16,416 nucleotides of DNA from Candidatus Raymondbacteria bacterium RIFOXYA2_FULL_49_16 (lineage in GTDB: Bacteria; Fibrobacterota; OXYB2-FULL-49-7; XYB2-FULL-49-35), in contig MFYT01000013.1 in NCBI GenBank assembly GCA_001789205.1, positions 1 through 16,416 on the forward strand, given 5' to 3'. Position numbers and translations under genes: made by a program. Position 1 is the stretch's first letter. Each line of letters begins with the position of its first letter. The notes beneath the pieces were generated by a model. It made no database searches, had not been told where the DNA came from, and worked only from the letters and a program-made list of their open reading frames with translations. Positions 3,143 through 14,755 of the stretch are shown piece after piece.

Positions 3143-3490
3143 TTATAATGAGGTGGATCGACGGATCTTCTTTAATAATGGCAGAACTGCGGGAAGATCG
3201 TTTTGTACGATGCCCCAGACTATCTCATAGTTTACACCAAAGTAATCGTGTATCAGAATGTCCCTCAGGCCGGCCATACGTCGCCATGGCACACGGGAAT
3301 TTTTCTGCCTAATCATCGCAGGAATTTTCTTTGTAGCTTCGCCGATGATCTCAAGATTCCGAACAATCGCATCTTGTGTTTTAGTGTCTTTAGTGAATGA
3401 ACGGTAGTTTATGCCGGATGCGTAATTCTCGATCCGTTTCAAGGCTTCAATCATATCCTCGAGAAGTTCACGTATGCCACGATCAGACAT
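3143..3490 (-). CDS. hepT: HepT-like HEPN ribonuclease toxin
   Basis: A 115-residue HEPN-domain (DUF86) protein. The catalytic RX4HXY motif is intact as Arg76, His81 and Tyr83 (RDILIHDY). In the MntA/HepT module HepT is an RNA-cleaving toxin that MntA silences by adding AMP to the motif tyrosine; that is family knowledge, not shown here. The start at 3490 was chosen because MSDRGIRELL begins the conserved first helix and overlaps the mntA stop by 8 bases (ATGTCTGA). A start at 3541 is possible, but would add 17 residues of out-of-frame mntA sequence. The order antitoxin then toxin matches the family. Confidence 0.88.
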   Translation of the reverse strand: MSDRGIRELLEDMIEALKRIENYASGINYRSFTKDTKTQDAIVRNLEIIGEATKKIPAMIRQKNSRVPWRRMAGLRDILIHDYFGVNYEIVWGIVQNDLPAVLPLLKKIRRSTSL

Positions 3491-3803
3491 ATGCCAGGTC
3501 TTTCTTGATGTCCGCGACCGTGGTGCGGCTTCGGATGGCATTTACCCCGTCTTTCGTAAGCATATCGACCCTTCTTCCTGTCTTTTTTTCGAGGAATTCC
3601 TTCATTTCAAAGAAGGCAAAGCCGATAGGTTTCGCGAGATGAACGACAAGATCAACATCGCTGTTGATGGAGGGGCGTCCAGAGGCAAATGAGCCAAACA
3701 GCGCCATTTTCCGTACGCCATATTTACTGCGCAAAACAGGCAGCAAACTATGAAGGGTCCGGATCATGTTCCTGCGCTGGATTGTGGTGTTCTTTGAAGT
3801 CAT
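3483..3803 (-). CDS. mntA: MntA-like minimal nucleotidyltransferase antitoxin
   Basis: A 106-residue minimal nucleotidyltransferase. The GSX10DXD motif is exact: Gly37-Ser38, then Asp49 and Asp51 (GSFASGRPSINSDVD). The third acidic residue is likely Asp80 (RRVDML). All residues needed for AMP transfer are therefore present, which fits the AMPylating antitoxins paired with HepT. Its 3' end overlaps hepT by 8 bases. The ATG at 3803 has no Shine-Dalgarno sequence; a second Met at residue 13 follows AGGA but at very short spacing. Two modes of expression are plausible: from the promoter-like sequence just upstream, which would give an almost leaderless mRNA, or coupled to nadD, whose shifted frame would end in an ATGA overlap here. 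Confidence 0.9.
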   Translation of the reverse strand: MTSKNTTIQRRNMIRTLHSLLPVLRSKYGVRKMALFGSFASGRPSINSDVDLVVHLAKPIGFAFFEMKEFLEKKTGRRVDMLTKDGVNAIRSRTTVADIKKDLAYV

Positions 3804-6181: not shown

Positions 6182-9133
6182 TTATTTTTCCGTTGCCGTA
6201 TACACGCCGTCCCAGGGTTCGCCTTTTTTTACCGGAGGGTTTTCCTTGTACTCGATGCAGCGCTGCAACATCACCTTGCTCGGGCAGGTTTTAACGCCCG
6301 GCTGCGGATACCAGATTTCGTATTTGAGCGCCTCTTCGTACAGGGCAATAGCGTCGTCCCACTTTGTCGCGCGATAGGCGGCAAGGGCCTGGGAAAAGGT
6401 CTCCACCAGTTTTTGCATTTTCTCGTCAGCCTCGGTCTTGAGGCAGAGCAGTTCGTGGATTGCCACGGGTTCGTTTTTTCCCACCACGCGCAAAAGGTCT
6501 ATTTCGCGCGCCAGGATGGAGCCGTCGGTGAGTTTCAGCGTGTCATTGGAGCAGGTGGAGAACGAACCATACTGTTTTGAGCCTGACTCGAGGCGGGCGG
6601 CAAGGTTCACGGCATCGCCCATCATGGTGTAGTTCATGCGCATGGTGGAGCCCATGTTGCCGGTCACGATGGGGCCTGAATTGACGCCGATGCGCATGCG
6701 CATCTCGTGGACAATGGTGGGCCATTTTTCGCCTTCGGATTGCCATTTGAGCCTGAGTTCTCCCAATTTGCTCTGCATTTTGAGCGCGGTCTTGCAGGCG
6801 CGTGTGGCGTGGTCGGGCAGGGGCATGGGCGCTCCGAAAAAGGCGATGATCGCGTCGCCTTCGTACTTGTCAAGCGTGCCTTGTTCGCTCATCAATATAT
6901 CGGTCTGAGCCGAGAGGTATTCGTTGAGCAGTTCGACCAGTTTTGTGGGGCTTCCCAGTTTTTCGGAAAAGGTTGAGAAACCCTGGATGTCCGTAAAATA
7001 GGCGGTGCGCACGCCTTCATCGCCGCCCAGCTGGGGCCGCTGCTTGGTTTCGTACATCACGTCGATGAGCTCGGGCGAGAGGTAGTTTGAGAAGGTGGCT
7101 TTCAGGAACTTCTTATCGCGCTCCTCGGTAATATAGCGGTAGACCAGGACGCCGATGAACGAAGCGAAGATGCCCAGAACCGGTCGCACGACCTCAAAAT
7201 CGACATTGTTGAAAAAGTAGGTGAAGGTGACCACGTAGATGTAGCCCAGGGCAAGGGCCACGGAAACGCCAATGCCGAAAAGCGGTTTTACAAAGAAGAC
7301 CGCGAGCGAGGTGGCAAGGCATAGCGCCAGCACCACAAGAAACATGGGCAGGGGTTCCACGGGCTCCATGAAATCAGTGTGGAGGATGTTGTCGATGCAG
7401 GTGGCGTGGATTTCCACGCCCGGGTACTCGGCCGCGACCGGTGAACCGACCAAGTCGAACATGGAGGGCGCGTTGGATCCGATAAGGAATATTTTGCCCG
7501 CGAAATATTCGCGCGGCACCCGTTTTGCCAGGATGTCGTAATAGGACACGGTCTTGAAGGTGGCCTGCTTTTGCCCTTTATAATTGATGCGCATGCGGCT
7601 GCTTTCGTCCACGGGAATGCGGATGGGATCGCCGAACGAGACGGTTTCATTGGGCTTGATGGCGTTGATGTCCTTTTCGATGAGGGCGAGGAGCTGGTCG
7701 AGTGTCTTGCCGCGCAGAAGCGTGTATTCGGTGTACAGACCGTCTGCCTTGCGCCAGACCGTGAGCTGCTCTGAGACCGGGAGGGTCTCCCCGTTTTTCA
7801 GGGCCATGATTGTTTTACCGTTGAGTCCCGCTACCAGGAGTAGCGTGGACAGGGGGATGTATTCAATGGCGTTTTCGCCGTTGTCAACTTCTATGATCGT
7901 GAATTCTTTTTCGCCCACGCGCTGTATCGCTGTTGACTGGCCCACGCCAATGGGTTCATTTTCCGGCATGCCCAGGAATTGCTCCGCGGTCACGCCGTTC
8001 AGGTCGCGGATGGTGGAGAATCCCAGGATCCCGGCCGGGATGTCGCAGGTGATCGCGCCGGTTTGGTCTTTCCTGACCACCGCCTTTTCGGTGATGATGA
8101 GGTTGCCGCCAACCTTGAGCGCCTTGATTTCAGGCGCGCGCCGCAGCAGCGCGCGCACCATTGTCCCGTTCATGCCCGGATAGCTCACGGTGAGCGAGGA
8201 ATCCGCTTCCCTGCGCAGATAAAAGGGCTTGCCGCAATCGATGTACTTGCCCGGGACAAAGGTGACGTCCTTGAGCCTTTTGCCCATGACTTTGAGGCAG
8301 GTCTGGAGCGAGAGCGCGGGATAGACATAGCCGCGGAAGACATTGAGCAGGGGGATGGTACGGTGGATCGCATCCTCATCGGCCGCGACGTTCACCAGGG
8401 CGATGCGGTCCGCGGCCTGGGCCAGTTCGGGAAAGGCGCCGTCGAGTACAGTCTTTTTCGGCAGCCGCTCTATGGACATGGCCTCCATCTTGGTACTCGA
8501 CTCCGGGTTTGATTCAAGACGGTGTTTTTCCGTGGTACGCGCCATATAATCCGACCGGTTGTCGTAGTTGAGGGTGTCGTTGAGGATCATGGCGTGGATC
8601 ACATTGCCCGCCCGCTGTGTCGACTGGACAAACTGGCTGTCGTAGTTTACCCCTGTGGCAATGGCCTGGTGCAGGCGGGAGAAGTCGGCCTTGGTAAAGG
8701 AGAGCGCCCCCTGGCGCTGTGCGAGCATATCCATGAAACGGTTCGATTCCTTGACCCCGAAATCAGCGTCGTTGAAATGAATATCAAAGACCTCCACCGC
8801 GGCGTTGCCCGACTTGAGATATTCGACCACATCGCCATGGTAGCTGCGCGGCCATTTGTAGTAAACGCCCAATTTATCAGAAAGCATGCTCCGCTCGTCA
8901 ATATTCACGATGACCACGTCTTCGATGAGGTCGACTGTGCGCACGCCCTCCATGCCTGTGCTGCTGAACGCCGAGCTTCCCAGGTATTTGAGCTGGTATC
9001 TGAAATCATAGGTCTTGTTCTCGAGGTTTGTCCACAGTTGGGGCATGAGTTTCCGGACCATGCCGGTGATCAGAAGTGCCGCTGCTACGCCGATTCCCAG
9101 GGCCAGGCCCAGTTTTTTGAGGGTCTTTTTCAT
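6182..9133 (-). CDS. CHASE2-domain class III adenylate cyclase, membrane-bound
   Basis: The 983-residue sensor cyclase has a first membrane helix at about 8-25, a large extracytoplasmic CHASE2 region to about 590, three more helices (about 595-615, 617-640, 650-666) and a cytoplasmic class III catalytic domain (about 700-895). All six canonical residues are present: metal-binding Asp715 (FTDIQGFS) and Asp760 (KYEGD), base-selecting Lys756 and Asp840 (MMGDAVN), and transition-state Asn843 and Arg847. The Lys/Asp pair indicates ATP, hence cAMP. The tail (about 905-940) has a TPR-like helix pair, AAYRATKWDDAIALYEEALK. The sensor is longer than usual, with an extra segment at about 345-500. The ATG at 9133 has a strong AGGAGC ribosome site. 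It lies 35 bases after the pgsA-like gene. Confidence 0.92.
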   Translation of the reverse strand: MKKTLKKLGLALGIGVAAALLITGMVRKLMPQLWTNLENKTYDFRYQLKYLGSSAFSSTGMEGVRTVDLIEDVVIVNIDERSMLSDKLGVYYKWPRSYHGDVVEYLKSGNAAVEVFDIHFNDADFGVKESNRFMDMLAQRQGALSFTKADFSRLHQAIATGVNYDSQFVQSTQRAGNVIHAMILNDTLNYDNRSDYMARTTEKHRLESNPESSTKMEAMSIERLPKKTVLDGAFPELAQAADRIALVNVAADEDAIHRTIPLLNVFRGYVYPALSLQTCLKVMGKRLKDVTFVPGKYIDCGKPFYLRREADSSLTVSYPGMNGTMVRALLRRAPEIKALKVGGNLIITEKAVVRKDQTGAITCDIPAGILGFSTIRDLNGVTAEQFLGMPENEPIGVGQSTAIQRVGEKEFTIIEVDNGENAIEYIPLSTLLLVAGLNGKTIMALKNGETLPVSEQLTVWRKADGLYTEYTLLRGKTLDQLLALIEKDINAIKPNETVSFGDPIRIPVDESSRMRINYKGQKQATFKTVSYYDILAKRVPREYFAGKIFLIGSNAPSMFDLVGSPVAAEYPGVEIHATCIDNILHTDFMEPVEPLPMFLVVLALCLATSLAVFFVKPLFGIGVSVALALGYIYVVTFTYFFNNVDFEVVRPVLGIFASFIGVLVYRYITEERDKKFLKATFSNYLSPELIDVMYETKQRPQLGGDEGVRTAYFTDIQGFSTFSEKLGSPTKLVELLNEYLSAQTDILMSEQGTLDKYEGDAIIAFFGAPMPLPDHATRACKTALKMQSKLGELRLKWQSEGEKWPTIVHEMRMRIGVNSGPIVTGNMGSTMRMNYTMMGDAVNLAARLESGSKQYGSFSTCSNDTLKLTDGSILAREIDLLRVVGKNEPVAIHELLCLKTEADEKMQKLVETFSQALAAYRATKWDDAIALYEEALKYEIWYPQPGVKTCPSKVMLQRCIEYKENPPVKKGEPWDGVYTATEK

Positions 9134-9168: not shown

Positions 9169-10374
9169 CTATTTAAAATATTTATCCAAAATGAAGCGGC
9201 AGGCAAGGATATAATCGATACCTGATACGACCGTGACTGCGGTGACCAGGGCCATGAGGGTGAAGGGCACATAGCTCCAGACCACGAGCAGCGAGGCGTA
9301 GATTTCCGGATAGAGTGAGGGAAAAGACGAGTGGGCAAGCGTGCTGAGCGTGGTGGCAAGCAGGAGAATGGTGAGAATGGCCGTACCTTGCAGGCCGGTC
9401 TTCCACTTGCCCGAACGCCGGGCGGACACGACCACATTTTCAGCGGCCGCGAGTGTGCGGATGACCGAGATGGAGGCCTCGCGGTAGTAGATGAGCGCCA
9501 CCATCCAGACCGGCACATAGTTTGAGGCCACAAAACAGAGGAAAATAGTGGTGGTGCAGATTTTATCGGAAAAGGGATCGAGGTATTTGCCGAACTTGGT
9601 CACCTCGTTGCGTTTGCGCGCAAAATAGCCGTCTAATCCGTCCGAGACCACAAAGGCGATGCCAAAGACAATGGCGATGATCTGAAACATAAGGGAGTTG
9701 TCGGCGAAGTTGGGGTTGCGGTCGTAGAAATAGATGACCAGAAAGGCGGGGCTCATGAGCAGGCGCACGAGCGTGATTTTTGTGGCAAGGTTCATGTCCT
9801 TGATGCCGCGGCGTTTTTTAAAGTAGTTCCAGATAAAGCCCGCGGTATCGGCAATGGCCACCATGAGCACCAGAATCATGGCAAGGTCCGCAAGGTGTGA
9901 AAGATTCAGCACAACCGTGGGACCGGCAAAGGGATAGCGTTTGATGGTGTAGAGGGCGGCGACCGTCACCAGCGCCACCTCATTTACACGACGCATGCTT
10001 ACGGGGGCGAAATAATCGCGGCTGCCTCTGAGAAAAGCGATGCTGTGCCACATGGAAAAAAGCTCCTTGAGCACAATAAAGAGGGACCCCAGCACCATGA
10101 GGGCCGGAAAGCGTTCTGATCCGGCGATTTCCATACGTCCCAGGAGGGCGAGTACCGGAATAAAGGCAAAGCCGTCAATGACCGAGGAAAAGACCTTTGC
10201 CTTGAAATTGACCCTGAAGCGGCCGAAAAAGGAGATGGCCACAATGGCGGCCATGCCGTAGGCCGCGTTGAGGTGCTGTCCGCTCTGAAGGGCTTTTATG
10301 ATCACTGGTACCAGGCAGAGCTTTCCGATTGAAACAAGGGTGAGGGGCAGGGGAATGCGCAGGGGTTTGTTCAT
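9169..10374 (-). CDS. pgsA: PgsA-like CDP-alcohol phosphatidyltransferase with a degenerate N-terminal copy
   Basis: The C-terminal half (about 195-401) is the size of a whole PgsA. It carries the full motif D-x2-DG-x2-AR-x8-G-x3-D-x3-D: Asp245, Asp248-Gly249, Ala252-Arg253, Gly262, Asp266, Asp270. It also has the PgsA-like stretch YYREASISVIRTLAAA followed by GKWKTGLQG. It should transfer a phosphatidyl group from CDP-diacylglycerol, probably to glycerol 3-phosphate. The N-terminal half (1-190) is also membrane protein with the same order of elements, but without three of the four catalytic Asp. The usual protein is about 180-200 residues, so this one is doubled. The start overlaps the recN stop by four bases (ATGA). 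The exact acceptor alcohol is inferred. Confidence 0.85.
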   Translation of the reverse strand: MNKPLRIPLPLTLVSIGKLCLVPVIIKALQSGQHLNAAYGMAAIVAISFFGRFRVNFKAKVFSSVIDGFAFIPVLALLGRMEIAGSERFPALMVLGSLFIVLKELFSMWHSIAFLRGSRDYFAPVSMRRVNEVALVTVAALYTIKRYPFAGPTVVLNLSHLADLAMILVLMVAIADTAGFIWNYFKKRRGIKDMNLATKITLVRLLMSPAFLVIYFYDRNPNFADNSLMFQIIAIVFGIAFVVSDGLDGYFARKRNEVTKFGKYLDPFSDKICTTTIFLCFVASNYVPVWMVALIYYREASISVIRTLAAAENVVVSARRSGKWKTGLQGTAILTILLLATTLSTLAHSSFPSLYPEIYASLLVVWSYVPFTLMALVTAVTVVSGIDYILACRFILDKYFK

Positions 10375-12020
10375 ACGGTGCCTTCAACGAGTTCGCGGGC
10401 ATGGCTGAGGCCAATGCGTGATTTGGCATTGCCCAGCATACGGGCGATTTCAGCCACGCGATCGTTATTGCACAGCTCCCTGATCGCGACATGGGCGCGG
10501 GAGCGCTCCACGGATTTTGACACCAGGAAGTGCGCGTCAGCGGCGGATGCGATCTGGTGCAGATGGGTGACACAGAAGAGCTGGTGAAATGCGGAGAGCT
10601 TTTTGAGAGCAGCGCCAATGGCCACAGCGGTCTCGCCGCCTGTTCCCGCGTCTATTTCATCGAACACGAGGACCGGAATGCGGTCGGCCGCGGCAAGGAC
10701 CGATTTGACAGCGAGCATAACGCGCGAGGTTTCGCCGCCCGATGCGATTTTTGACAAAGGACGCTGGGGTTCGCCCGGGTTTGCGGCTATCATGAATTCA
10801 AGGCCCTCGCCTCCGGAGGGGCTGTATTCGGCAAAAGGGGTGAAGCAAGTGGCAAAGGCGGCCTCGCCCATGTTGATGGCAGCAAGCGCCTGGTTTATTT
10901 TTTTGTCGAACGAGGCAGCGGCTTTTTTCCGTTCGGCGGATAGTTGTTTCCCTGCTTTTTCCATGTCCCTGTACAGGCCAGCTGCCTCTTTTTCGAGCCT
11001 GTTTTTTTCGAACGACGTATTTTCGAGGAGATCGAGGTCGGCCCTGGTCTGATTGAGCAGGTCAACAAGGCCTTGTTCGTCTTTGCCGTATTTGCGTTTG
11101 AGCCTGCTGATCTGCGCCAATCCGCTGTTGAGCGCCTCGATGTCGGCTGGTTCGTCGTCAGCGGAGAATTCCCGGTCGCACGCTGATACCACTTCACCCG
11201 CTATTTTACGGAGATCGGCAATGGCCGCGGCTTGGCCGGCAAAGCTATGATCAATTGCCGCAAGCTGGAGCGCGGCCTTTTCCGCGCTTGCGAGGCGCTT
11301 TAAGAAATCGTCGTTGAGCTGGTCCTGCACTTTTTGCCTGAGCTCGGTTGTTTTGTGGCCGCCTTCGGCGCGCTTTATCCTCGAAAGCAGCTCAGCTTCC
11401 TTTCCGGGAGAGAGTCCTGCCTCGATTAAATCCCTGAACTGGAACTCGAGAAACTCGCGTTGTTTCCCGATTTCGCGGGAGCGGGCCTCGAGGGCCGCGC
11501 ATGCCGCTTTTTTCTCGCTGTACGCCTCGTAGCGAGCGGAGTAGGATGCGCATAGGTCGCTTGCCCCTGCATAGGCGTCAATGCATTCGCGCTGGTAAGC
11601 GGGCCCAAGCAGGGACTGGTGCTCGTTCTGGCCGTGGACGTCGACCAGAAGGTCGCCCAGGTCCTTCACGGTCTTGAGCGGGGATTTGATGCCGTTGACG
11701 AAACAGCGGTTTTGGCCGTCGTCGTTTATTTCGCGGCGCACGGAAATCTCGCCTTCCTCGGGCGCAACGCCAAGCTGTTCGCAGGCAGCAAGCAGCTTTC
11801 GGTTTTTTCCTATGGTAAAGGTGGCCTGCACCATGGCCTGCTTTTCGCCCGTGCGGATGGCGGAAGGATGGGCGCGGCCGCCCAGCACCAGAGAAAGCGC
11901 CTCGATGATGATGGATTTGCCCGCGCCGGTTTCTCCGGTGACAACGTTGAGTCCCAGGCCAAATGCAATGTCGATTTTTTCTATGAGGGCAACATTGCGG
12001 ATGGATAAAAAAGAAAGCAT
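10371..12020 (-). CDS. recN: DNA repair protein RecN
   Basis: RecN is an SMC-like ATPase that acts at DNA double-strand breaks. The 549-residue product is full length. It has the Walker A motif GETGAGKS (29-36), the VDVHGQNEHQSLL Q-loop region (126-138), a long coiled-coil centre (about 160-380), the ABC signature SKIASGGETSR (423-433), Walker B VLVFDEID (450-457) followed by AGTGG, and the switch VTHLHQIA (484-491). The ATG at 12020 is preceded by GGAG at good spacing. It is the first gene of the minus-strand series and overlaps the pgsA-like gene by four bases. No LexA box was recognised in the short upstream region, which holds a repeat cluster instead. Confidence 0.97.
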   Translation of the reverse strand: MLSFLSIRNVALIEKIDIAFGLGLNVVTGETGAGKSIIIEALSLVLGGRAHPSAIRTGEKQAMVQATFTIGKNRKLLAACEQLGVAPEEGEISVRREINDDGQNRCFVNGIKSPLKTVKDLGDLLVDVHGQNEHQSLLGPAYQRECIDAYAGASDLCASYSARYEAYSEKKAACAALEARSREIGKQREFLEFQFRDLIEAGLSPGKEAELLSRIKRAEGGHKTTELRQKVQDQLNDDFLKRLASAEKAALQLAAIDHSFAGQAAAIADLRKIAGEVVSACDREFSADDEPADIEALNSGLAQISRLKRKYGKDEQGLVDLLNQTRADLDLLENTSFEKNRLEKEAAGLYRDMEKAGKQLSAERKKAAASFDKKINQALAAINMGEAAFATCFTPFAEYSPSGGEGLEFMIAANPGEPQRPLSKIASGGETSRVMLAVKSVLAAADRIPVLVFDEIDAGTGGETAVAIGAALKKLSAFHQLFCVTHLHQIASAADAHFLVSKSVERSRAHVAIRELCNNDRVAEIARMLGNAKSRIGLSHARELVEGTV

Positions 12021-12262: not shown

Positions 12263-13255
12263 ATGTATCTACTAAAACTTATGCTTTCGCGCATTGTTAC
12301 TCATAACGACCTTGACGGCATCTTTTCCGCGTCGCTGTGCAGCGCCATCCATGGCATTGACGAGGTGGAATTCACCGGGCCCAACGCGGTGGCCAACCGC
12401 GCGGTTTCCATCACCGCGGACGACATTGTCTGCGACCTGCCCTATCCGGGCGAGTGCGGGCTCTGGTTCGACCACCACGCGGGCAATGCTGAGGAGCTCA
12501 GGCGGCTGGGCGTTGACCCACTATCGCAGCCCGGACGGTTTGCGCAGGAAAAGAGCTGCGCGCGCGTCATCTATTCCTATTACCAGAACGACTACGACTT
12601 CCCCGTCTTTTACGGCGAATCGGTGCGCGAGGTCGATAAAATTGATAGCTTTGATTTCGCATCAGTGGCTGAATGGCGCGCGGAGACGCCTGTGCGTATC
12701 ATCAATGATTCGCTCAAATGCGCGTTTAGGGACCGCGAGGCCGAGGGGGCCTATTATCGCTCCCTTATCGGCAGGCTTGCGGAACAGAGCATGGCCGAGG
12801 TGGCGCAGGCCAACGATGTGCGGGACTATTTCCAGGCCTATCTGAAGGACGAGGAGAAGATGGTTGAATTGATCAGGGCATCGTCATCGTTCCATCCGGC
12901 TGATCGGGACAGGGAGTTTGCCATCATCGACCTTACCCACTATCCCAAACAGACCATGGTAGTACGCAATCTTGCCCAGATCATTTACCCGGAGATATAC
13001 GGCGTTTTCCTGGTCCAGAACCTGTACGACCGCGGTGTCAAGACCACCAATCTCAAGGTGTCGGGGTCGCTCACCATCCGCAATGGCAAGGGAAAAAAGG
13101 ACATCGGCGAGATCATGCGTATTCTCAACATCGGCGACGGCCATCCGGGCGCGGGATCGGGCCAGATTTTCTGCGATTCAAAGGCGGACATGGAGCGGAA
13201 AAAACAGGACGCCCTTGACAAAATCTGCCAGATCTGGCATTCACAGGCGGCCTGA
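12263..13255 (+). CDS. DHH/DHHA1-family phosphoesterase
   Basis: The 330-residue protein has the DHH metal-site motifs: THNDLDG (13-19), CDLP (57-60), FDHHAGN (69-75) and DKIDSF (125-130). The C-terminal DHHA1 part has GDGHPGAGSG (291-300), a variant of the usual GGHxxAxG substrate-binding loop. Relatives are Mn-dependent phosphodiesterases or phosphatases acting on nanoRNA, pAp, cyclic dinucleotides or polyphosphate; which one cannot be told. It is probably cytoplasmic. Two starts are possible: ATG at 12263, or Met7 at 12281 (MLSRIVTHND). The second is closer to the motif and follows a TATAGA-like -10 box at 12253. Neither has a clear ribosome site. It is divergent from recN and convergent with the next gene. 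Confidence 0.88.
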   Translation: MYLLKLMLSRIVTHNDLDGIFSASLCSAIHGIDEVEFTGPNAVANRAVSITADDIVCDLPYPGECGLWFDHHAGNAEELRRLGVDPLSQPGRFAQEKSCARVIYSYYQNDYDFPVFYGESVREVDKIDSFDFASVAEWRAETPVRIINDSLKCAFRDREAEGAYYRSLIGRLAEQSMAEVAQANDVRDYFQAYLKDEEKMVELIRASSSFHPADRDREFAIIDLTHYPKQTMVVRNLAQIIYPEIYGVFLVQNLYDRGVKTTNLKVSGSLTIRNGKGKKDIGEIMRILNIGDGHPGAGSGQIFCDSKADMERKKQDALDKICQIWHSQAA

Positions 13256-13297: not shown

Positions 13298-14755
13298 CTA
13301 TTTTTGTATCACAAGACGCCTGCTCAATACCCTGCCTGCTGTTTCCACCCGAACAATGTACATACCTGACGGCCAGGCATCGGCATTGCAGGTGAAATAC
13401 GCCCTATTGGAAATCCGGTAATACAGGCGCCCGTTTATATCGTACACGCCGGCCCTAATTCCCGTGTTCTCGTTCCCGCGGATCCTGACAGCGAATGACG
13501 ACCTGCCTGGATTGGGATTTACCGTTATGGTAACGGCTACCAAGTTTGCCTTTTGGCCATGTTCGTCTACGGCCGCGGGAATCAAATGCGCAATGCTCCA
13601 CACATGGATAACAGGTTTATCGGAACGGTACTGGAAGGCATAGATGATCCCATTGTCCCGGTCGTACGCAAGGGCCTCAATGCCGTTCCTGCAGTTATTG
13701 TTCCAGAAAAGCCTGTTGTCAAGATCTTCGACATGATACGGCATGACTTCATTTGGCTGCATGTGGCCCTGGGCCACCTTGCCCAGGGCCATAGGGTCAT
13801 AAAATAACAACCTGTGGGTATATGGGTAGCCGTGGGACCCCTTGTTCCCACCGCAAAGATCATTACAGTCCACCGCACTGCCGTAGCAATCACTTCCTCC
13901 TTCGGTGGCGGTCACGATAATGGAGGATTTATTACCCGCTTCCAGCCAGGCGCCTGCGAAATACTGGTTCACCATCTTATAATCGGGCCATTCGTCGGAG
14001 CCGGGAGAGTAAAAAGCCAACCGGACCGCGGGCAGGATCGTGCCGTTGGCAGGGGAGCCCGCAGGTACCTCGATGGCATAAAATGGAGGTCCTTCGGACT
14101 GGTGGCCCCTTCCTGAGGACCTTGCCCTGCCGCCTATAACATTCGTACCAGGTGCGTACTGGTCGGCCCACCATTGTGGAATTAAGAAGAGATAATCCGT
14201 GGTGAAAATGGAATGATAACTTCCCGCGTGCCAGAGGCCGCCTGCATTGGGCGAGGAAAGAGTGGAGGTGGATATGCCAAAGCCGTTCATGTCCTCGGGC
14301 ATTACATAGTAATATTTATAGGCTGCCCAGAATATGGAACCGTCCGGCATATACTGGAGCCCGCCTAGGCGGTCGGCGGAAGCCGGTCCCTGGTCCATAT
14401 TCATTAAACCCTGGGTAATATCGGCAAAAGGTTGAAGCGTGGTTGCCACAGGCAGGTCGTCATAATTGGTGCTGACGAGTGGTGCAGGAATGGAAATTTC
14501 AGACACATGGTTTTGATAGATATGGCCAACACCGAAAAGCGAGCCCGGATAACCATCGACCTTGCCGCCAGGGTCTCCATGTGGATTGAATGTAAGCGCC
14601 CCGCCGCCATATCTCCATTGGGAAGTCCCGCTTTTACCAGGCAGTTTGAAAGCACCCTTGTAGACAATGTCGCTTGGCATAAAAAGCCTGCCCGTGTCAA
14701 TTTGGGCACAAATGGACATGGATAATATGTAAACTATTACTGAAAAACCTTTCAT
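13298..14755 (-). CDS. Secreted protein of unknown function with a T9SS type A-like C-terminal tail
   Basis: The 485-residue protein starts with a signal peptide (cleavage likely after SICA, residue 17). The main region (about 25-400) is rich in Gly, aromatic residues and beta-type sequence, for example GAFKLPG, YGGGALTFNP, GYPGSLFGVGH and GGLQYMPDGS. It contains a Cys cluster at 290-301 (CYGSAVDCNDLC). I do not recognise a characterised family. The last 75-80 residues match the Por-secretion sorting domain pattern: NPNPGRSSF (413-421), AGVYDINGRLYY, WPSGMYIVRVETAGR, ending RRLVIQK. In type IX systems this tail directs export and surface attachment. The ATG follows a strong AGAAGGGGG ribosome site. 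It is divergent from the regulator gene, which may control it. Confidence 0.8.
   Translation of the reverse strand: MKGFSVIVYILSMSICAQIDTGRLFMPSDIVYKGAFKLPGKSGTSQWRYGGGALTFNPHGDPGGKVDGYPGSLFGVGHIYQNHVSEISIPAPLVSTNYDDLPVATTLQPFADITQGLMNMDQGPASADRLGGLQYMPDGSIFWAAYKYYYVMPEDMNGFGISTSTLSSPNAGGLWHAGSYHSIFTTDYLFLIPQWWADQYAPGTNVIGGRARSSGRGHQSEGPPFYAIEVPAGSPANGTILPAVRLAFYSPGSDEWPDYKMVNQYFAGAWLEAGNKSSIIVTATEGGSDCYGSAVDCNDLCGGNKGSHGYPYTHRLLFYDPMALGKVAQGHMQPNEVMPYHVEDLDNRLFWNNNCRNGIEALAYDRDNGIIYAFQYRSDKPVIHVWSIAHLIPAAVDEHGQKANLVAVTITVNPNPGRSSFAVRIRGNENTGIRAGVYDINGRLYYRISNRAYFTCNADAWPSGMYIVRVETAGRVLSRRLVIQK

What the first reader, a model, noticed from the sequence alone, without database searches (positions are those of the whole stretch)
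9169..10374. Doubled PgsA: an inactive-looking copy fused to an active one
The C-terminal half has every catalytic residue. The N-terminal half follows the same plan: PLTLVSIGKLCLVPVII against KITLVRLLMSPAFLVIY; KVFSSVIDGFAF against FGKYLDPFSDK; VLKELFSMWHSIAF against YYREASISVIRTLA; and a final helix with a basic end in both. The D-x2-DG-x2-AR part is missing and only Asp67 remains, in the place of Asp266. This looks like gene duplication and fusion with loss of activity in one copy, possibly giving an internal pseudo-dimer, since enzymes of this family act as dimers.
Basis: partly seen in the sequence, partly recalled or inferred. Interest (0 to 1): 0.65.

Follow-up and report, generated by a model that had tools for sequence, protein, structure and literature searches.

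The report
Lipid enzyme fused to dead twin
In this bacterium and its Fibrobacterota relatives, the only enzyme that makes the membrane lipid precursor phosphatidylglycerol phosphate carries a second, catalytically dead domain on its front that is predicted to have the same fold, so one chain may contain both halves of what is normally a two-chain enzyme.

Summary
Confirmed: window 9169-10374(-) encodes a 401-aa protein. Residues 194-391 are a complete PgsA. Residues 1-190 are a six-helix domain without the catalytic motif. The architecture is not a local oddity: an N-domain profile finds it in 117 of 167 genomes of the phylum, while other families of the phylum have ordinary ~200-aa PgsA. The own genome has only this PgsA plus one PssA. 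All 51 C-halves read keep every catalytic residue; no N-half has the motif, yet the N-halves are under purifying selection.

An AlphaFold2 model of the N-half (two sequences; pLDDT 72.7, pTM 0.61) nevertheless matches CDP-alcohol phosphotransferases: the top eight aligned entries are all of that family, led by S. aureus PgsA (Z 12.9, 163 of 185 residues, 3.3 Å). Topology and three buried charged residues agree. One correction: Asp67 corresponds to Asp270, not Asp266.

Best reading: a degenerate CDP-AP protomer fused in front of an active PgsA, probably as a pseudo-dimer (untested). Tandem CDP-APs and the pseudo-dimer idea are already published (CHPT1): a new variant of a known kind.

The parts
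9169..10374 (-). whole gene, 401 aa, two-domain PgsA
   Evidence: TIGR00560 and PF01066 on the C-half
9805..10374 (-). N-half, residues 1-190: six-helix domain without catalytic motif, predicted CDP-AP fold
   Evidence: AF2 pLDDT 72.7, pTM 0.61; VIA-align top 8 entries all CDP-AP, best 7drk Z 12.9
9172..9795 (-). C-half, residues 194-401: active-looking PgsA
   Evidence: TIGR00560 above cut-off; SaPgsA structure 7drj E 2.8e-22 with the family profile
9565..9642 (-). catalytic motif D245-x2-D248G-x2-AR...G262-x3-D266-x3-D270
   Evidence: present in 51 of 51 fused proteins
9787..9819 (-). short linker between the two domains (residues 186-196), conserved RDPxHRKP in relatives
   Evidence: column counts
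10321..10323 (-). K18 in N-TM1; R/K in 46 of 51; proposed equivalent of R204
10174..10176 (-). D67 in N-TM3; D/E in 48 of 51; proposed equivalent of D270, not D266
10066..10068 (-). K103 in N-TM4; R/K in 49 of 51; proposed equivalent of R298
9988..9990 (-). R129 at the start of N-TM5; K/R in 50 of 51; proposed equivalent of K323/K325
10371..12020 (-). recN immediately upstream, 4-base ATGA overlap with the start of the fused gene; adjacency kept in relatives

Best explanation
The gene encodes the organism's only phosphatidylglycerol phosphate synthase. The C-terminal domain is the enzyme: it binds CDP-diacylglycerol and metal ions through the four-Asp motif and transfers the phosphatidyl group to glycerol 3-phosphate (inferred from family membership). 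The N-terminal domain is a CDP-alcohol phosphotransferase protomer that has lost the catalytic motif (shown: motif absent, domain conserved in the family, selection retained; predicted: same fold). Both domains run parallel in the membrane with cytosolic ends (inferred from charge distribution). The domain most likely takes the place of the second subunit of the usual homodimer, so that one chain is a pseudo-dimer with a single active site, the dead half serving as structural partner (inferred, not shown).
For: C-half is PgsA above curated cut-off, sole PgsA beside a PssA in the genome, with CdsA- and PgpA-family genes present. N-half fold: AF2 on the N-half alone pLDDT 72.7, pTM 0.61; structural alignment puts S. 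aureus PgsA first (7drk Z 12.9, 3.3 A, 163 of 185 residues, model 8-184 on chain 1-185), the first eight entries are CDP-APs, best unrelated chain Z 10.2; the full-length model gives the same for residues 6-194. Two-domain form in 117 of 167 genomes of the phylum, ~200-aa PgsA elsewhere. Full motif in 51/51 C-halves and 0/51 N-halves; buried charges K18, D67, K103 conserved as basic/acidic/basic in 46-49 of 51. Loop charges give Nin-6TM-Cin for both halves. Omega N 0.14, C 0.07 (median of 48 pairs). Weak in-register PF01066 matches in five relatives' N-halves, residues ~71-168 on profile 72-150, E 3.7e-4 to 0.26. Precedent: in CHPT1, TM7-10 superpose on TM3-6 of the neighbouring protomer of bacterial dimers, the repeat is not recognisable in sequence, and tandem bacterial CDP-APs exist in InterPro (PMC10182977).
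Against: Profile-profile comparison of the halves is not significant and native helix order does no better than shuffled order. N-halves also give comparable chance hits to unrelated membrane families (TgpA_N 1.4e-4, DUF7807 6.7e-4), so the PF01066 hits alone prove little. The AF2 alignment had two sequences, only the best of five models exceeded pLDDT 61, Foldseek's own E-values were not significant, and Z 12.9 is just under the tool's caution level for helical bundles. Oligomeric state and domain packing were not tested; the full-length model is poor (pLDDT 50).
Confidence: 0.6

Rival explanations
1. The N-half is a degenerate CDP-AP domain, but the protein still dimerises through its C-halves; the N-half is a peripheral regulatory or assembly domain (for example a lipid sensor or partner-binding platform).
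For: Fold evidence is the same. The N-half evolves about twice as fast as the C-half by omega and has its own conserved non-PgsA features such as the IEKPYYxLW stretch and the RDPxHRKP linker. CHPT1, with its extra half, is still a homodimer.
Against: A short linker and parallel topology fit a partner position well; the CHPT1 precedent puts the extra half in the position of the bacterial partner protomer.
Confidence: 0.22
2. The N-half is an unrelated six-helix membrane domain that happens to resemble a CDP-AP in a low-depth model.
For: No significant sequence match by any profile method; low-depth model; six helices is common.
Against: Eight of the top eight structural matches are CDP-APs from several subfamilies, covering the whole domain end to end; charges in TM1, TM3 and TM4 are conserved with the signs and order of PgsA; same inside/outside charge pattern.
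Confidence: 0.15
3. Annotation artefact: the true protein starts at the internal Met194 and the N-half is not translated or is a separate gene.
For: Met194 opens the PgsA-like part and AAGGAC lies directly before it.
Against: The frame is open through both halves in all 51 proteins read; Met194 exists in 1 of 51; the AGGA is too close to the ATG; N-halves are under purifying selection.
Confidence: 0.02

Closest known systems
PgsA, CDP-diacylglycerol--glycerol-3-phosphate 3-phosphatidyltransferase (TIGR00560; S. aureus PgsA 7drj/7drk)
   Same: C-half: family match over the curated cut-off, complete motif, six helices; N-half predicted to have the same fold
   Different: S. aureus PgsA is one ~190-residue domain; here a second, motif-less domain precedes it in the same chain
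Eukaryotic cholinephosphotransferase CHPT1/CEPT1 (PMC10182977, 8ero)
   Same: CDP-AP chain with an extra repeat without the motif, not recognisable in sequence; proposed origin by duplication/fusion
   Different: There the extra unit is C-terminal and has only four helices (TM7-10), and CHPT1 is still a homodimer; here the extra unit is N-terminal and complete (six helices), and the enzyme is a bacterial PgsA
Bacterial tandem CDP-APs listed in InterPro (B3T1S3, cited in PMC10182977)
   Same: two CDP-AP units in one bacterial chain
   Different: those are recognised as two CDP-AP units by sequence; here one unit is unrecognised by Pfam and NCBIfam and lacks the motif. B3T1S3 itself was not examined here
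AF2299 and AfIPCT-DIPPS (4o6m, 4mnd)
   Same: CDP-AP domain with an N-terminal fused domain
   Different: the fused domain there is a soluble cytidylyltransferase or related domain, not a second membrane protomer (from general knowledge)

Membership tests
PgsA (C-half) | match to TIGR00560 above curated cut-off | tested here: met
   115.4 bits against 109.1
PgsA (C-half) | D1xxD2G1xxAR...G2xxxD3xxxD4 motif | tested here: met
   D245, D248, G249, A252, R253, G262, D266, D270; 51 of 51 family members
PgsA (C-half) | phosphatidylglycerol phosphate synthase activity | not testable with these tools
   needs enzyme assay or complementation
CDP-AP superfamily (N-half) | six-helix CDP-AP fold | tested here: met
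   AF2 model of N-half matches CDP-AP structures in the top eight places, best Z 12.9 over 163 residues; moderate confidence because the alignment had two rows
CDP-AP superfamily (N-half) | PF01066 match above the gathering score | tested here: not met
   none in the window protein; best relative 21.4 bits against 22
CDP-AP superfamily (N-half) | catalytic motif | tested here: not met
   0 of 51 N-halves; so it is at most a degenerate, non-catalytic relative, not a functional member
CDP-AP superfamily (N-half) | significant profile similarity to PgsA | tested here: not met
   hhalign E 0.02-0.19, no better than helix-shuffled controls
Pseudo-dimeric CDP-AP (CHPT1-like arrangement) | extra unit occupies the place of the neighbouring protomer | not testable with these tools
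   full-length model too poor (pLDDT 50); no complex prediction available
Pseudo-dimeric CDP-AP (CHPT1-like arrangement) | both units parallel in the membrane | tested here: inconclusive
   positive-inside pattern is the same in both halves, Nin-6TM-Cin, which fits; but topology is inferred, not measured

The most novel reading that the evidence does not exclude
One major lineage of Fibrobacterota has replaced the homodimeric PgsA, normally an essential lipid enzyme, by an obligate intramolecular pseudo-dimer with one live and one dead complete protomer. This would be a bacterial counterpart, independent of the eukaryotic CHPT1 lineage, and would show that the second active site of the CDP-AP dimer is dispensable while the second protomer is not.
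Probability: 0.45. Interest if true: 0.6.

Novelty: new variant of a known kind. Interest (0 to 1): 0.5.

Why it matters
The CDP-AP enzymes of known structure are homodimers, and why they need a partner is unclear. A naturally fused pair with one dead half separates the need for a second protomer from the need for a second active site, and offers a bacterial intermediate for the duplication-and-decay path proposed for eukaryotic phosphatidylcholine synthesis. It also gives a likely identity to a currently unannotated ~190-residue domain found in over a hundred Fibrobacterota genomes.

Tried and rejected
Direct profile-profile comparison of halves (hhalign through the tool and locally, 19 to 51 sequences a side): E 0.02-0.19, best local hit out of register. 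hhalign with composition-corrected scoring (-sc 4) gave E 8e-6 with near-full-length register, but 76 of 240 helix-shuffled profiles scored as high, so it was discarded as evidence. Own global aligner with all 720 helix orders: native order ranked 6-8 for the window's own lineage under two of four gap settings, but not for the other lineages; inconclusive. Ungapped sliding of single helices: TM3 puts D67 on D270 as second best of all positions; other helices mixed. Power control: PgsA proteins with the motif masked still match PF01066 at 3.9e-10 and 2.7e-16, so the N-half has drifted far beyond mere motif loss. N-half profile against PDB sequences: no match at E up to 10. Tree of C-halves: fused form clustered, but single origin neither shown nor excluded. 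The S. aureus PgsA and AF2299 papers are not in the library.

Full report
The observation. The minus-strand ORF 9169-10374 encodes 401 residues. Residues 194-391 match pgsA (TIGR00560, 115.4 bits, cut-off 109.1) and PF01066 (E 1.8e-32); residues 1-190 match nothing in Pfam or NCBIfam. The catalytic motif is complete in the C-half and absent in the N-half. The genome holds two genes with PF01066, this one and a PssA (TIGR00473 over cut-off), so this is its only PgsA; CdsA- and PgpA-family genes are present.

It is a conserved architecture. A protein search of 60 genomes of the phylum gave open frames of 385-437 residues in families f2 and f7 and mostly ~200-residue frames elsewhere. A relative in the public collection is titled Fibrobacteres bacterium (L031, 53% identity). 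A profile of 19 N-halves (A3) found the domain in 117 of 167 genomes of the phylum, in families f1, f2, f7, f11 and f12, within open frames of 378-472 residues, and in none of the listed f5 and f10 genomes. The window's genome is the only one held of its class. Most relatives for which enough flank was read carry recN directly upstream; in the window the recN stop and pgsA start overlap as ATGA. The C-half tree clusters the fused form but does not settle whether it arose once.

The N-half is maintained but catalytically dead. Of 51 fused proteins read in full, 51 C-halves have D-x2-DG-x2-AR-x8-G-x3-D-x3-D and no N-half has D-x2-DG-x2-AR. Median omega over 48 pairs with dS 0.1-1.2 is 0.14 for N and 0.07 for C (distant pairs are near saturation and some give N omega near or above 1, so this is rough). 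N-half identity between lineages falls to 17% where the C-half keeps 47-53%.

Sequence comparison of the halves. PF01066 touches the N-halves of five relatives in the right register (residues ~71-168 on profile positions 72-150; E 3.7e-4, 0.0027, 0.0063, 0.013, 0.26), but unrelated membrane families reach similar E-values in other N-halves and DUF6232 touches more members. Motif-masked true PgsA sequences still match at 4e-10 or better, so the N-half has diverged far. I count sequence evidence as weak support only.

Structure. AlphaFold2 on the N-half of the window and L031 alone gave pLDDT 72.7 and pTM 0.61 with six helices at 9-30, 34-50, 57-85, 90-115, 125-146 and 152-189. Structural alignment ranks S. 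aureus PgsA first (7drk Z 12.9, 3.3 A, 163 of 185 residues; 7drj Z 12.7); ranks 1-8 are all CDP-APs, and AF2299, DIPPS and PSS follow; the best unrelated chain has Z 10.2 and the best unrelated natural protein 8.5. The full-length model, poor overall, shows the same for residues 6-194. Cautions: two-row alignment, one model of five above pLDDT 61, Foldseek E-values not significant, Z just below 13, and the tool's advice that helical bundles reach such values by chance. What carries weight is the specificity: the family predicted in advance takes the top eight places, end to end.

Register and residues. K18-L-x-L-x-P23 lines up with R204-L-L-M-S-P209 (TM1), D67 with D270 (TM3), K103-E104 with R298-E299 (TM4), R129 with K323/K325 (TM5). 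This pairing was made by hand from the alignments and is consistent with the end points of the structural match; a residue-level structural alignment was not available. Across 51 proteins these N-half columns are basic in 46, acidic in 48, basic in 49 and basic in 50. In f7 relatives the TM3 motif reads GDK against SDK. Asp67 is therefore more likely the equivalent of the fourth Asp (in M. tuberculosis PgsA1, D93, proposed catalytic base; PMC9385802) than of Asp266. With the other three Asp gone, it is unlikely to assemble the metal site. Loop charges give the same inside/outside pattern for both halves, Nin-6TM-Cin twice, joined by a short cytosolic linker, which allows a parallel arrangement like the native dimer.

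How it most likely works. The C-half does the chemistry. The N-half, a complete but dead protomer, probably fills the partner position. This last step is inferred. It follows the published case of CHPT1, in which TM7-10 superpose on TM3-6 of the neighbouring protomer of bacterial CDP-AP dimers, the repeat is not recognisable in sequence, and duplication or fusion followed by loss was proposed; the same paper notes tandem bacterial CDP-APs in InterPro (PMC10182977). CHPT1 itself remains a homodimer, so an extra half need not abolish dimerisation; that is the main rival.

Verdict. It is a new variant: a bacterial PgsA with a complete, dead, N-terminal protomer, found across a large part of a phylum.

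Noticed in passing
6182-9133 (-): CHASE2-domain adenylate/guanylate cyclase directly downstream of the fused pgsA; CHASE2-like pieces also lie beside the single-domain pgsA in other families of the phylum, so this neighbourhood may predate the fusion.
   Followed up: partly
3143-3803 (-): Two small overlapping ORFs that look like a HEPN/MNT nucleotidyltransferase toxin-antitoxin pair (by sequence appearance only).
   Followed up: no
13298-14755 (-): Secreted-looking 485-aa protein with a C-terminal Por secretion sorting tail just under the Pfam cut-off.
   Followed up: no
12263-13255 (+): 330-aa protein with no Pfam family at E 0.001; the stretches HNDLDGIFSA and WFDHHAGN look like a DHH-type phosphoesterase.
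   Followed up: no
L134, L135 (family f11): Most diverged N-halves among the fused proteins: the TM3 acidic position is Tyr and the TM4 basic position is Gln, which suggests further decay of the dead domain in a lineage with 1.6-2.1 Mb assemblies.
   Followed up: partly
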